This document shows, one piece after another, positions 12,161 to 22,158 of a stretch of DNA of 22,322 bases. Source of the stretch: Promethearchaeota archaeon (GTDB taxonomy: Archaea > Asgardarchaeota > Lokiarchaeia > Sigynarchaeales > SOKP01); the NCBI GenBank assembly GCA_004524425.1, contig SDNN01000025.1, forward strand, positions 1-22,322, written 5' to 3'. A program made the translations under genes and the position numbers. Numbering within the stretch: the stretch's first letter is position 1; each line of letters starts with the position of its first letter. The notes under the pieces are model-generated. The model saw nothing but the letters and a program-made list of their open reading frames with translations. It did not search any database and had not been told where the DNA came from.

Positions 12161-13096
12161 TTAATATCTGTGTTTGAATTTATATTGAAAAACTAAATAA
12201 GATGCCATGATACCTCCTAGATCGGGAAGATAAACTGCAAAGTATAAGGGAGATACTAATATTCCAAAGAGCAATCCTGGTAATAACCTAAAAAGAATTA
12301 AAACTAAGATTAAAGTCTTTCCCTTCATTTTCACGGGAAGAAAAAAACAAAGCAACATCATCTCTCTATCAGGGTTGAAGTAAACGATGAATGAAATTAA
12401 TCCCAAGATTGCACCGGTTGCTAATCCTATAAATACCACGTTTTCGGCATTTATAGGGTAGGCAAAACTTAGAAGATATCTAATCAAGATATAGAATAAA
12501 CCAGTAATGACGGCACAAAAAATATATAAGCTAACAAGAAATCTCGTACCAAATCTTGACTCAACAGTTTTTGAAATATTATAAAGAAACAATATCAGGA
12601 TGAATAGAAATAATAGACCTAAGATACCAGCTGAATAACTAATAAATAAAGAGGAAATTATCGTCCATAAATATAACTGGGACAAACCATAAAGACTTAA
12701 ATTCAGATAGAGTGGTAAAAAGATAGCAATAATGGAAAGTATAACTATGGTGATAATAATGAAATTAGTACCCCTGGTCTCTCCTGCCTGATTAAAATAA
12801 GATTGATAGCTTCTCATAGTTCTACTTCTGTCTCTCTTTTGTTGTTTTAAATATTTCTTCATGGCTTTTTCCTTTTGATAACTATAACGACGGCTTGAAG
12901 TCTTATACTTGGTCCCTATAGGAGGTCTCATCTGAGCATCTCCAGTACTAGTAGGAACGACGGGCGTATGTTTTAATTCGAAAGAACAGTCATGATTTTC
13001 GGGCAAACGATGCTTTTTACAATAAGTTCCCCCACAATACTTGCATTTAAAAGGCAGGTATCCTATCTCTTCCCCGCAAAATTCACAAAAAGGCAA
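12161..13096 (-). CDS. AN1 zinc finger fused to a rhomboid-like pseudoprotease
   Basis: The N-terminus is a textbook AN1 finger: Cys 4, 7, 18, 21, 26, His 29, His 35, Cys 37. A basic linker follows (about 60-105). Then come about six membrane segments from residue ~110 to 302. Rhomboid landmarks are visible: ESRFGTRFLVSLY at 179-191 (the conserved loop after the first segments), GLATGAILGL at 224-233 where active rhomboids have GxSG, and DLGG at 292-295 where they have HxGG. The catalytic Ser is thus Thr227 and the catalytic His is Asp292, so it should be inactive, like derlins and iRhoms. The start is TTG at 13096, with GGTTGA 6 nt upstream; no ATG fits, because the finger begins at residue 4. 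It lies beside another AN1 membrane protein, suggesting related work in membrane-protein quality control or ubiquitin-like recognition. Confidence 0.85.
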   Translation of the reverse strand: MPFCEFCGEEIGYLPFKCKYCGGTYCKKHRLPENHDCSFELKHTPVVPTSTGDAQMRPPIGTKYKTSSRRYSYQKEKAMKKYLKQQKRDRSRTMRSYQSYFNQAGETRGTNFIIITIVILSIIAIFLPLYLNLSLYGLSQLYLWTIISSLFISYSAGILGLLFLFILILFLYNISKTVESRFGTRFLVSLYIFCAVITGLFYILIRYLLSFAYPINAENVVFIGLATGAILGLISFIVYFNPDREMMLLCFFLPVKMKGKTLILVLILFRLLPGLLFGILVSPLYFAVYLPDLGGIMASYLVFQYKFKHRY

Positions 13097-13298: not shown

Positions 13299-14285
13299 CT
13301 AGTTATTTGCTACATATACTGAAGATTCAATTGGGGCATAAATATTGGCATATGCTATTATTAATAATATTAACAATAATCCGGCAATTATGAGATAAAC
13401 AGTTTTATTCCACTTAAAAATATTTTGTCCATCTAATATACCAATTGGAATCATGTTAAATAATCCTAACATGAAATTTAACGCGGCAGCATATCCTACA
13501 AACAAATTCAATGGGAACAGCTCCCTAGGTATCATGAAAGAGATCAATAGAAGAATTCCACCATATATTAGATTTACTATGGGCCCTGCTGCTTTACATA
13601 ATCCCGTTTTCCTATCTATTTTTTCTAACCCTAAAACCACCACCGCCCCAGGTAATGCTAAAATGGGTAAATTAATAGAACCTGTCAATAATGAAACCAA
13701 ACCTGATATTAATCCAAAAATAGTTAAAAGCATACCGAAGGTAAGAAGTCGAAACTTGGTCTGCAAACCGAATTTCAAGGCTACTTGCCTATGACCAAAC
13801 TCATGAAACAGAAATGCTGTTGTATAAAATCCCGCCAATAGAAAAATTGCCCAAATCATATTCAATTTTACTAAAAGAGGATTATAAAACACGATTAGAC
13901 CTATACTGAATATCAAAATTGCTCCTATGAGTAAATGAATAAATTCTGATTTATGAGGTAACAAAATCCCCTTGAATTCTATTCCCGATTCGGGATCGAA
14001 AGCATTCTCTGGAACATATCTTTCTTGTCGATGCCATGTATAACTTCCATCGGTGGTTCCCCTAACAATCGGAGTTTCAACATCATTTTCTAATGAAACC
14101 TGCGAAACAATTTCCCGCTCTGAGCGTTGATCTTGATATTGATTTGAAGAGAGTGAATCCATCACAATTTTACATTCATGATCTATTGGATCTTTATGGA
14201 GTGTGCAATAATCCTGACCACATTTATCGCAATGAAAAACTTCATTTAATGCAATTTCTCTTCCACAATGATAACAGATTGTCAT
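13299..14285 (-). CDS. AN1 zinc finger fused to an M50 site-2 protease
   Basis: A 328-residue membrane protein. The AN1 finger uses Cys 4, 7, 19, 22, 27, His 30, His 36, Cys 38. A soluble linker runs to ~110, followed by several membrane segments. The zinc metalloprotease motif HEFGH is at 161-165 inside a hydrophobic helix, AAGPIVN at 232-238, and the second M50 motif NMIPIGILDGQ at 277-287 with LDG supplying the third zinc ligand Asp285. All catalytic elements are present, so it should cleave membrane helices. Site-2 proteases act in regulated intramembrane proteolysis; the AN1 finger probably recruits substrates or ubiquitin-like signals, which is inference. ATG at 14285 is preceded by AAGGAG at a rather long distance (~15 nt). 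Its neighbour is an AN1-rhomboid pseudoprotease in the same orientation. Confidence 0.92.
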   Translation of the reverse strand: MTICYHCGREIALNEVFHCDKCGQDYCTLHKDPIDHECKIVMDSLSSNQYQDQRSEREIVSQVSLENDVETPIVRGTTDGSYTWHRQERYVPENAFDPESGIEFKGILLPHKSEFIHLLIGAILIFSIGLIVFYNPLLVKLNMIWAIFLLAGFYTTAFLFHEFGHRQVALKFGLQTKFRLLTFGMLLTIFGLISGLVSLLTGSINLPILALPGAVVVLGLEKIDRKTGLCKAAGPIVNLIYGGILLLISFMIPRELFPLNLFVGYAAALNFMLGLFNMIPIGILDGQNIFKWNKTVYLIIAGLLLILLIIAYANIYAPIESSVYVANN

Positions 14286-20762: not shown

Positions 20763-21467
20763 ATGGCTGATTCGTTGATATGTGGAATAGATGAGGCTGG
20801 CAGAACATGATCCTATTCGAATCACGTGCTGAAAGGCCCAGCGATAGGTCCACTTATAATTTGTGGTGTATGTTTTTTAGATTCCAAGCTCTCCTATCTA
20901 AGTAAAATCGGAGTGAAAGACTCTAAAAAATTGACTGCTAAAAAGAGAAAAGATCTATCTGAAAAAATAAGAAGTGAATGTCATTCTTATGAGTTAATAA
21001 TAATAACAGTTCAAGAAATTGACAATAGAGAAAAATTGAATCTGACATTAAATAGATTGGAAGAATTGAAAATGGCAGAAATCCTTAATAAATTAAAACC
21101 AGACGAGATATACATTGATGCCGTGGATGTAAATGAAAAAAGATTTGGGCAATCCATGAAAAATTTATTAAACTTCACGCCCAATAAATTGATTTCCAAG
21201 CATAAAGCAGACGATATTTATCCCATTGTGTCCGCAGCTTCAATTATTGCCAAACACGAAAGAGATTCCATGATGGTGGAATTGAATAAAAAATATGGAA
21301 ATATGGGCTCTGGATATCCCTCGGATAAAAGAACTACGGATTTTATGAGAAAATGGATAAGGGAGAATAAAAGCATACCTGGTTTTATTCGAAGATCATG
21401 GGAAACAACTAAAAAAATATTTGAAGAAGAGGTCGAAAATAAGAAAATTACTGATTTTTTTAGGTGA
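20763..21467 (+). CDS. rnhB: RNase HII, interrupted by a probable 30-nt intron
   Basis: RNase HII cuts the RNA strand of RNA/DNA hybrids. From ATG 20763 the frame reads MADSLICGIDEAGR and then meets a stop (TGA 20808). From 20834 it resumes exactly in phase with GPAIGPLIIC and runs to the end. Joining 20763-20803 to 20834-21467 gives 224 residues, normal for the family, and rebuilds the universal motif DEAGRGPAIGP with catalytic Asp10 and Glu11. Other conserved parts are present: YIDAVDV (Asp109), SKHKADDIYPIVSAASIIAK (Asp140/141) and the GSGYPSD region. Translation from GTG 20826 alone would lack the first two catalytic residues and be inactive. The C-terminus NKKITDFFR resembles a PCNA-binding PIP box with Asn in place of Gln, as known for archaeal RNase HII. 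The 3' end overlaps fibrillarin by 8 nt. Confidence 0.9.
20804..20833 (+). other. Candidate bulge-helix-bulge mRNA intron in rnhB (30 nt)
   Basis: The segment contains an in-frame TGA and separates DEAGR from GPAIGP. A fold with archaeal splice-site topology can be drawn by hand. The outer exon-exon helix pairs 20792-20797 with 20836-20840, leaving one A unpaired. A 4-nt 3' bulge (20832-20835) follows. The central helix is TGGC 20798-20801 with GCTG 20828-20831, 4 bp of which two are G-U. A 3-nt 5' bulge AGA (20802-20804) is next. The inner helix pairs 20805-20811 with 20821-20827 with one A-C mismatch, and a 9-nt loop closes it. Cutting after the second base of each bulge joins GGCAG to AGGCCC, giving Gly-Arg-Gly-Pro. 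The wobble pairs and the 4-nt bulge make it a relaxed form. Confidence 0.68.
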
Positions 21468-22158
21468 TGTTTCTTTTTATGATAAGTATGAGATGATTCG
21501 CAGCATATTTATGAATGTTAATGCTTTCAACGAGTTTATAACCACCAGCTTCTAATATTTCTTTCTCGTTTTTATACACTTTTTCAGGTTTGGAAACACT
21601 ATCAATTGATTGAGATTTTAGGGCCACAATTGCCATGCCCTCTTTTTTTAAATAATAGTTTGAATTTGCTATGGCAATATGTGCTTGATTTGGTTGAGCC
21701 ACATCTTGATAGATGCAGTCAATTCCCGTATATATCGATTTTGCATAGCTTTCCGGGAATCGAGCATCTCCTAATATGGGAATGATATTTTTTCGGTTTG
21801 AGGTGTTTTGAATTAATTGTCTTATACTGCGCTCGGCAAATTCTACTCCATAAATTAAACCATTTTCAGCAATATCAGAAAGATGGGAAATAGTTGTTCC
21901 TGATCCCGCTCCCAAATACAAGAATTTTGCATCAGGAGATAAAAAATTAGTAATTGGATTTTCTGAAATTAAAGCCGCCAATTTACTTCTATAGGGGTCC
22001 CATTCTCTAAACTCTATTCCCTTGTATTCAACAAGCTTCTCTCCATATACGTTTTGACCTGGAGTAAGATTCTTGGTATACATTTTTGCATTCTCTAATG
22101 GTCCACTAATATAAACATTTTCAAATTTAGGATGATTTCTAATATCCGTTCTACTCAA
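21460..22158 (-). CDS. flpA: Archaeal fibrillarin, rRNA/tRNA 2'-O-methyltransferase
   Basis: 232 residues. Fibrillarin is the S-adenosylmethionine-dependent methyltransferase of the box C/D ribonucleoprotein, guided by small RNAs to rRNA and tRNA. Diagnostic parts: NVYGEKL and EFREWDPYRSKLAA in the N-terminal region, the SAM-binding FLYLGAGSGTTISHLSD at about 79-95, YGVEFAERSIRQL, LGDARFPE, IYQDVAQPNQA, ALKSQSID and the end HKYAANHLILIIKR. The start is TTG 22158, supported by GAGGCGA six nt upstream; no ATG fits. It overlaps the upstream nop5 stop by 4 nt (TTGA), so translation is coupled, as in the usual archaeal nop5-flpA operon. Its 3' end overlaps rnhB by 8 nt in the opposite direction. 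Confidence 0.97.
   Translation of the reverse strand: MSRTDIRNHPKFENVYISGPLENAKMYTKNLTPGQNVYGEKLVEYKGIEFREWDPYRSKLAALISENPITNFLSPDAKFLYLGAGSGTTISHLSDIAENGLIYGVEFAERSIRQLIQNTSNRKNIIPILGDARFPESYAKSIYTGIDCIYQDVAQPNQAHIAIANSNYYLKKEGMAIVALKSQSIDSVSKPEKVYKNEKEILEAGGYKLVESINIHKYAANHLILIIKRNIT

What the first reader, a model, noticed from the sequence alone, without database searches (positions are those of the whole stretch)
20792..20842. RNase HII active-site motif interrupted by an exact 30-nt segment that folds like a bulge-helix-bulge intron
DEAGR ends at 20804 and GPAIGP begins at 20835 in the same phase. The 30 nt between contain a stop. Removing 20804-20833 restores the invariant DEAGRGP. The RNA fold has an exon-exon helix, a 3' bulge with the downstream junction, a 4-bp central helix, a 3-nt 5' bulge with the upstream junction and an intron hairpin, which is the topology cut by the archaeal tRNA splicing endonuclease. 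Established: mRNA introns of this type are known in archaea, notably in cbf5. I know of none in rnhB, and the essential catalytic Asp-Glu pair would depend on splicing. The wobble pairs and one mismatch leave room for doubt.
Basis: partly seen in the sequence, partly recalled or inferred. Interest (0 to 1): 0.87.

Follow-up and report, generated by a model that had tools for sequence, protein, structure and literature searches.

The report
Spliced mini-intron in Lokiarchaeal RNase HII
In this Lokiarchaeon-like genome the gene for the DNA-repair enzyme RNase HII is cut in two by a 30-letter insert that looks like an intron of the tRNA-splicing type; relatives share it and other core genes of the same archaea carry similar ones, which suggests that these kin of eukaryotes splice some of their messenger RNAs.

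Summary
Observation confirmed. DEAGR (to 20804) and GPAIGP (from 20835) are separated by 30 nt with an in-frame TGA; removing 20804-20833 restores full RNase HII. Of 74 readable rnhB genes in 83 genomes of one Lokiarchaeal class, 35 carry an insert at this site (34 of 30 nt, one of 28). Compensatory changes support bulge-helix-bulge (BHB) geometry (20 pairs, 90.2% of cells paired, 0 of 500 shuffles as high), although the window alone is predicted to fold otherwise. Four Thermoplasmatota genomes carry 35-43-nt inserts at the same codon; these and the 28-nt one break the frame, which argues against read-through. A motif model then led to similar ~30-nt introns in other Lokiarchaeal genes: rpS3 (two sites), AMP phosphorylase, dnaG, pyruvate kinase, a Ras-like GTPase, and tRNA-Thr. 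One rule (cut between nucleotides 2 and 3 of each 3-nt bulge) restores these frames; at the second rpS3 site it gives LEMPQ, as in intron-less relatives. EndA-family genes were found in 15 of 15 genomes checked, RtcB in 14. No transcript was seen: splicing is inferred. In the held library I found only the crenarchaeal cbf5 intron of this type in a reading frame.

The parts
20763..20803 (+). rnhB exon 1 (MADSLICGIDEAG + AG), with the catalytic Asp-Glu of DEAGR (role recalled)
   Evidence: in the 34-row alignment the invariant columns 7-27 are 13 first or second codon positions and one third position
20804..20833 (+). 30-nt BHB intron, phase 2 (AG^A...AA^A)
   Evidence: Best match of models R1 (56.7 bits) and R2 (42.6 bits, next best 15.5) in the window, but the window is one of the rows from which both models were built
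20834..21467 (+). rnhB exon 2 (rest of RNase HII and stop codon)
   Evidence: Pfam RNase_HII: 162.3 bits joined against 140.7 for the ORF from 20826 alone
20808..20810 (+). in-frame TGA inside the intron
   Evidence: all 35 Loki inserts hold a stop in the frame of exon 1
20798..20801 (+). 5' strand of the 4-bp central helix (UGGC)
   Evidence: 92.2% of cells paired over 32 distinct rows, 25 to 50% at slides of 1 to 3 columns
20828..20831 (+). 3' strand of the central helix (GCUG)
20802..20804 (+). 5' bulge AGA; cut inferred between 20803 and 20804
   Evidence: Geometry; L104 has AGT here, yet the cut AG^...^A gives AGA
20832..20834 (+). 3' bulge AAA; cut inferred between 20833 and 20834
   Evidence: The column of 20834 is A in all 34 aligned rows while that of 20833 is A, C or T
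20805..20827 (+). intron hairpin: stem 20805-20813 with 20819-20827, 5-nt loop
   Evidence: 8 of 9 pairs show changes on both sides (1 of 500 shuffles as many), 85.8% of cells paired (0 of 500)
20790..20797 (+). 5' strand of a weaker exon-exon helix with 20836-20843
   Evidence: 94.6% of cells paired, but no pair with changes on both sides, so largely uninformative (coding sequence)

Best explanation
The 30 nt at 20804-20833 are a bulge-helix-bulge intron in the rnhB pre-mRNA. The transcript folds so that exon 1 (UGGC) pairs with the 3' end of the intron (GCUG), leaving two 3-nt bulges. The tRNA-type splicing endonuclease (two or more EndA-family matches in 11 of 12 Lokiarchaea searched) cuts each bulge after its second nucleotide, the RtcB ligase joins the exons, and the joined mRNA encodes DEAGRGP. 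The intron is probably an old feature of the Lokiarchaeal rnhB with several losses, and one member of a class of ~30-nt BHB introns in conserved codons of several Lokiarchaeal mRNAs and in tRNA. Shown: position, conservation, compensatory changes, frame restoration by one rule in several genes, presence of the enzyme genes. Inferred: cleavage, ligation, translation of the spliced product, age and losses.
For: 35 of 74 readable rnhB genes from 83 class genomes carry the insert at the same codon (G005 read). Structure: 20 pairs, 90.2% of cells paired, 10 pairs with changes on both sides, 0 of 500 shuffles as high, slides 29-48%; central helix alone 92.2%. Lengths of 28, 35, 37, 38 and 43 nt break the frame unless removed. 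In L104 the DNA reads AGT but the BHB cut restores AGA/Arg. One match in 75 of 76 genomes (see for unlisted second matches of G039 and G047). dN below dS in exon 2 in 10 of 10 pairs tested, nine of them between carriers. A model built from Loki rows finds three of the Thermoplasmatota introns at E 7e-7 or better, with exon sequence contributing. Similar introns in five other genes, nine of them in rpS3, with the predicted second junction LEMPQ against LE[ML]PQ in 30 of 30 intron-less loci. tRNA-Thr with a 29-nt intron of the same design, which ARAGORN recognises with an intron allowed or after removal. EndA family in 15 of 15 and RtcB in 14 of 15 chosen genomes. S3, AMP phosphorylase, dnaG, pyruvate kinase and GTPase match curated families after joining.
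Against: No transcript or protein data were available. Predicted minimum-energy folds hold 3 or more of the 4 central pairs in only 6 of 29 Loki rows, not in the window; an alternative 3-bp pairing competes, though comparison favours the BHB (75.0% against 92.2% of cells). In the central helix alone, the number of pairs with double changes (2) is reached by 165 of 500 shuffles; the other measures are rarer. The exon helix shows no double changes. The invariant GAG codon in 35 of 35 carriers against 21 of 39 non-carriers is not significant once kinship is allowed for, and two of three Thermoplasmatota carriers counted there have GAA. At the second rpS3 site the central pairing is imperfect. Two candidate inserts (L195, L197) do not fit the standard register. 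G025 bears introns but shows no RtcB.
Confidence: 0.93

Rival explanations
1. Programmed translational bypassing: the ribosome hops over the insert, helped by its hairpin, as in T4 gene 60 or yeast mitochondrial byp elements (both recalled), and no RNA is removed.
For: Insert sizes of 28-43 nt and a hairpin would fit, and the stop is the second codon of the insert in 29 of 35 Loki inserts.
Against: A hop needs matching take-off and landing codons and keeps codon boundaries (recalled); the junctions split codons: AG^A in rnhB, G^TT in pyruvate kinase, AGT restored to AGA in L104. An element of the same design sits in tRNA-Thr, which is not translated. The covarying 4-bp helix with two 3-nt bulges is what the splicing endonuclease recognises (literature).
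Confidence: 0.03
2. Stop-codon read-through or recoding: the insert is translated as a ten-residue loop.
For: 34 of 35 Loki rnhB inserts keep the frame.
Against: Lengths of 28, 31, 35, 37, 38 and 43 nt change the frame; the stop varies in type and position; it would put ten residues into DEAGRGP, which aligns without a gap to solved archaeal RNases HII once joined (two alignments seen).
Confidence: 0.01
3. rnhB is a pseudogene, or only a shortened protein from GTG 20826 is made.
For: The ORF finder lists that ORF.
Against: Exon 1 is conserved as coding sequence in the 34 aligned rows, no intact second copy was seen in the class genomes (two unlisted weaker matches), dN is below dS in exon 2, and the shortened form lacks the Asp-Glu of DEAGR.
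Confidence: 0.02
4. Assembly or sequencing error.
For: No reads of the window's contig were available here.
Against: Inserts at the same site, with diverged sequence and compensatory changes, are in 35 genomes, with isolate names from several sampling projects.
Confidence: 0.01

Closest known systems
cbf5 pre-mRNA intron of Sulfolobales and Desulfurococcales (PMC2738675: abstract and part 1 of the results section)
   Different: Other gene, other phyla; here about 30 nt with nearly fixed length in Lokiarchaea, several host genes, two per gene in rpS3. Spliced cbf5 mRNA was seen as cDNA; here splicing is not shown.
Archaeal tRNA BHB introns
   Same: Same motif and cut rule; tRNA-Thr(UGU) of two of these genomes has a 29-nt intron of the same design.
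   Different: The host RNA is an mRNA, and the exon part of the helix is coding sequence.
Haloferax volcanii HVO_1309 5'-UTR BHB sites (PMC7714728, passages)
   Same: mRNA processed at a BHB motif by the splicing endonuclease.
   Different: They lie in an untranslated leader and interrupt no reading frame.
Archaeal RNase HII (e.g. 1io2, 2dfh)
   Same: The joined protein aligns without a gap through DEAGRGP and passes TIGR00729 (218.6 bits, cut-off 123.3).
   Different: I know of none of those that needs splicing (recalled, not tested).

Membership tests
Archaeal BHB (splicing-endonuclease) intron | Two 3-nt bulges on opposite strands separated by a 4-bp helix | tested here: met
   central helix 92.2% of cells paired, two of four pairs with double changes; bulges AGA and AAA in the window. 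Met by comparison, not by the predicted fold of the window
Archaeal BHB (splicing-endonuclease) intron | Cut between nucleotides 2 and 3 of each bulge yields a correct mature RNA | tested here: met
   one rule restores rnhB, rpS3 (two sites), AMP phosphorylase, dnaG, pyruvate kinase and a GTPase; L104 AGT to AGA. Not met for the candidates L195 and L197
Archaeal BHB (splicing-endonuclease) intron | Outer helices on both sides (hBHBh') | tested here: inconclusive
   Intron-side helix supported by double changes; exon-side helix 94.6% paired but without double changes, with 20835 unpaired in the register used
Archaeal BHB (splicing-endonuclease) intron | Cleavage by EndA and ligation by RtcB | not testable with these tools
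   Genes present: EndA family 15 of 15, RtcB 14 of 15 chosen genomes; no RNA data
RNase HII (rnhB) | DEAGRGP motif and whole-domain match | tested here: met
   Only after removal of the insert: Pfam profile positions 1-199 of 199, against 8-199 without exon 1
Group I or group II self-splicing intron | Catalytic core of hundreds of nucleotides (recalled) | tested here: not met
   The insert is 30 nt
Translational bypass element | Matching take-off and landing codons, codon boundaries kept (recalled) | tested here: not met
   Junctions split codons

The most novel reading that the evidence does not exclude
Lokiarchaeia carry a dispersed and probably mobile family of ~30-nt BHB mini-introns that enter conserved, often catalytic codons of core mRNAs (rnhB, rpS3, dnaG, AMP phosphorylase, pyruvate kinase, a Ras-like GTPase) as well as tRNAs, so that spliceosome-free mRNA splicing is a routine part of gene expression in these Asgard archaea; the same rnhB codon was entered separately in Thermoplasmatota.
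Probability: 0.55. Interest if true: 0.94.

Novelty: new variant of a known kind. Interest (0 to 1): 0.88.

Why it matters
A 2020 paper states that cbf5 was then the only archaeal mRNA with a reported BHB intron of this sort (PMC7714728, passage). Here a second host gene has a deeply shared intron, and five more host genes follow. Because these are Asgard archaea, held to be the group nearest to eukaryotes (recalled), and because rpS3 and dnaG are core genes, the finding bears on when protein-coding genes came to need splicing, and it makes an open question (how common are archaeal mRNA introns, and do they move?) directly testable. An ordinary ORF call on such genes loses the active-site motif of RNase HII and would split rpS3; how public annotations treat them was not looked up.

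Tried and rejected
Single-sequence folding: not decisive, and for the window against the BHB form. An alternative 3-bp pairing seen in many predicted folds was tested by comparison and is worse (against 89). The exon GAG codon as a sign of structural constraint: striking in counts, not significant with kinship. Start at GTG 20826 rejected because exon 1 is conserved.

Rows dropped: alignment A2 (34 rows) is the window plus 33 of the 35 Loki carriers; L102 (28 nt) and L099 (stem shifted by one, gapped in A1) were left out. Model R1 was built from 29 rows (window plus 28 carriers; five more near-duplicates left out), R2 from 26; rows in a model match it by construction, so only 7 of the 35 rnhB hits are outside the model, most of them close kin of rows inside.

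Weak model hits were read one by one. Of 9 fetched, 6 are introns (4 in protein genes, 2 in tRNA-Thr), 1 lies in an unresolved RNA gene (L179) and 2 are not introns (L184, L185). Of 20 fetched, 6 are clear mRNA introns, 2 are candidates whose cut does not fit the standard register (MoxR Walker A in L197, a thiolase in L195), 1 is the same unresolved RNA gene (L200), and 11 are not introns (L191-L193, L196, L198, L199, L201-L205). From, L242 and L243 were fetched and are open frames; the other 7 non-rnhB hits there, and the weaker rows, were not read. Of the eight genomes hit, G084 and G322 (L237) carry the intron, L240 (G434) is an intact gene, L238 and L239 showed no DEAGR motif by the pattern used, and the hits in G178, G085 and G359 were not read. 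With strict filters that scan missed two known carriers (G258, G270), and the table was cut, so four Thermoplasmatota carriers is a lower bound. My first cuts for AMP phosphorylase, the GTPase and site 1 of L178 were one base off and were corrected.

Full report
What is in the window. The + strand reads GAT GAG GCT GGC AGA to 20804, then ACA TGA..., and GGC CCA from 20835 in the same phase. Deleting 20804-20833 gives one frame of 224 codons from ATG 20763 to the stop at 21465-21467, with DEAGRGP intact. The joined protein matches Pfam RNase_HII over profile positions 1-199 of 199 at 162.3 bits, against positions 8-199 and 140.7 bits for the ORF from 20826, and TIGR00729 at 218.6 bits with a cut-off of 123.3. 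It aligns without a gap through the motif with solved archaeal RNases HII (two alignments seen). No whole genome is held for the window. The closest named relatives by rnhB are Lokiarchaeota, and the window falls inside the Lokiarchaeal clade of the rnhB tree (support 99).

The insert is shared. In 83 genomes of the class of G001 (the genome of L002, titled Lokiarchaeota), 76 have an rnhB match. Two loci are partial; of the 74 readable genes 35 have an insert at exactly this site and 39 do not. Thirty-four inserts are 30 nt and one is 28 nt. In one search only G021 has a second match, and it is weak; with the joined query G039 and G047 also show a second match, too weak to be in the cut list. 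On a quick tree of 105 rnhB proteins the 59 Lokiarchaeal rows form a supported clade with 36 carriers (window included) and 23 non-carriers. A non-carrier (L053) is the supported sister of a carrier (L055), and L054 next to them is a carrier too, which I read as a loss; counts alone cannot tell gain from loss. The whole tree needs 10 changes, of which well supported branches force 3. Among the listed rows of 227 Asgard genomes, none outside this class starts at residue 12 or later of the joined query, and the five with an internal stop have no room for a 30-nt insert; the list was cut.

Structure. A gapless alignment of the window and 33 carriers (L099 and L102 left out) was scored with a named BHB structure: 20 pairs, 90.2% of cells paired, 10 pairs with changes on both sides, none of 500 shuffles as high on any of the five measures, and 29 to 48% at slides of 1 to 3 columns. 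The 4-bp central helix (20798-20801 with 20828-20831) has 92.2% of cells paired; its innermost pair occurs as U-G, G-C, U-A and C-G. Taken alone its percentage paired and covariation score are reached by no shuffle, but its number of pairs with double changes (2) by 165 of 500. Eight of nine intron-stem pairs show double changes. Against this, predicted minimum folds hold at least 3 of the 4 central pairs in only 6 of 29 rows, and not in the window, where another fold is 8 kcal/mol better. The competing 3-bp pairing is worse by comparison: 75.0% of cells, and 17 of 32 broken at its middle pair. The exon-exon helix is paired in 94.6% of cells but, being coding sequence, shows no double change. 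The alignment was made without structure, but the structure was derived from these sequences, which favours it.

Cut sites. The column of 20834 is A in all 34 rows while that of 20833 is A, C or T, as expected if 20834 is exon and 20833 intron. L104 has AGT instead of AGA before the insert; the BHB cut AG^U...AA^A still gives AGA, Arg. Five relatives have inserts whose length is not a multiple of three: 28 nt (L102), and 35, 37, 38 and 43 nt in four genomes of the phylum of G084, a Thermoplasmatales record (L237, L150, L148, L147), all at the same codon; the same rule restores the frame in all five. A model built from Lokiarchaeal rows finds three of these at E between 5.6e-10 and 7e-7, with the flanking exon sequence contributing; of eight intron-less controls in that call four matched, the best at 0.0029. 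The fourth (L237) came from its scan of 389 genomes. The three Thermoplasmatota carriers in the tree nest among Thermoplasmatota rnhB (L237 was not included), so the intron probably reached this codon there separately, or moved alone.

The gene looks functional. dN is below dS in exon 2 in 10 of 10 close pairs. In exon 1 the 14 invariant columns between 7 and 27 are 13 first or second codon positions and one third position. All 35 Loki inserts hold a stop in the exon 1 frame. GAG is used for Glu in 35 of 35 carriers against 21 of 39 non-carriers, while the rest of the gene in carriers prefers GAA (456 to 113), but with kinship allowed for this is not significant.

Not only rnhB. Model R1 over the 83 class genomes hit the rnhB site in all 35 carriers (E 1.5e-8 or better; 28 of these rows built the model) and nothing else below 0.02. 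The weak hits were instructive. Read in frame, four lie in protein genes: dnaG (VEKSD^IVGAIFGQTEG), rpS3 (VIGK^GGKR in the KH domain), pyruvate kinase (DLG^VEIP, 31 nt, codon G^TT split) and AMP phosphorylase (DKHS^TGGVPGN). Two lie in tRNA-Thr(UGU), where ARAGORN finds the tRNA only when it allows a 29-nt intron (at position 31 or 32) or after removal by the same rule. A core model R2, built from 26 rows including these, added over 38 genomes AMP phosphorylase in two more, rpS3 in three more and a Ras-like small GTPase (NPSE^RLTIGVDF, before the TIGVDF stretch). Below E of about 0.02 to 0.1 true and false hits mix. This search favours introns with the same loop, so a shared loop signature (UC before the closing G) is not independent evidence. 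In the 22-kb window R2 finds only 20798-20835 (42.6 bits; next 15.5).

rpS3 is the strongest case outside rnhB. 79 of 83 class genomes have a match. Eight genomes show a stop inside the matched span: five are carriers, and three (G036, G040, G076) have spans no longer than the query, so no insert of this size. Four carriers (G038, G039, G049, G057) have two inserts each, and G047 has one, at the second site; no intact second copy was seen. The second site (FGLE^MPQIEVE) was not found by the model but by reading the frames. I took its cut from the BHB rule, although its central pairing is imperfect; the result, LEMPQ, fits LE[ML]PQ in 30 of 30 intron-less loci listed in the same call. Three of the first-site introns are 31 nt and break the frame. 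S3 of G070 and G058, intron-less, is 95 and 93% identical to the query taken from G057, so these introns come or go between close species.

Machinery. Of 15 chosen genomes all have the EndA family above its cut-off. Of the 12 Lokiarchaea 11 have two or more matches, mostly in proteins of about 200 residues (G003 has one, G029 three), as expected of hetero-oligomeric enzymes; the three Thermoplasmatota have one reading frame of 347 residues with two matches. RtcB is found in 14 of 15, not in G025. That hetero-oligomeric enzymes cleave unconventional BHB motifs and go with cbf5 splicing is from PMC2738675 (results, part 1).

Prior knowledge. Ten searches of the held library were made. Judging by the listings, none gave a paper on rnhB introns in archaea or on mRNA introns of Lokiarchaea. 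PMC7714728 (passages) says that only the cbf5 mRNA intron had been reported and adds a BHB site in a 5' UTR; PMC2738675 (abstract and results part 1) describes cbf5; PMC12397907, PMC12558985, PMC6125680, PMC13149111 and PMC12918454 were seen in passages only, and those passages name no other. The library lacks most subscription journals and all preprints.

Verdict. As a kind, it is the archaeal BHB pre-mRNA intron; as a variant it differs in host lineage, in its uniform size of about 30 nt in Lokiarchaea, in having several host genes, and in two introns per gene in rpS3.

Noticed in passing
L197 (G028), about 1493-1531: MoxR-type AAA ATPase (by eye, no family search) with an in-frame, stop-bearing insert just before the Walker A motif (NGHVLLE / GVPGLGKT); a hairpin is present, but the cut does not fit the standard BHB register.
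   Followed up: partly
L195 (G040), about 1501-1540: Thiolase-like gene (by eye, no family search) with an insert of about 33 nt between IVIGN and MDHFEG; long hairpin, neither standard register I tried restores the frame.
   Followed up: partly
L179 (G077) and L200 (G028): A structured RNA gene, perhaps a tRNA with more than one intron (D-arm-like sequence before the mini-intron, then CTCGGCTGTAGA), that ARAGORN does not recognise.
   Followed up: partly
L105-L108 (G021, G019, G020, G023): Intron-less Lokiarchaeal rnhB genes read DEAGRGCL instead of DEAGRGP; one lineage has changed the residue after the junction motif.
   Followed up: no
window 12161-13096 and 13299-14285, strand -: Two neighbouring membrane-protease genes, one rhomboid-like and one peptidase M50-like, each with an N-terminal AN1-type zinc finger (the second AN1 match is below the Pfam cut-off).
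   Followed up: no
L192, L198 (G061) and L199 (G059): A near-identical stretch at three places in two genomes weakly matches the intron model; no interrupted reading frame was seen, perhaps a repeat.
   Followed up: no
window 21460-22158, strand -: A fibrillarin gene converges on rnhB; the two ORFs overlap by 8 nt at their ends.
   Followed up: no
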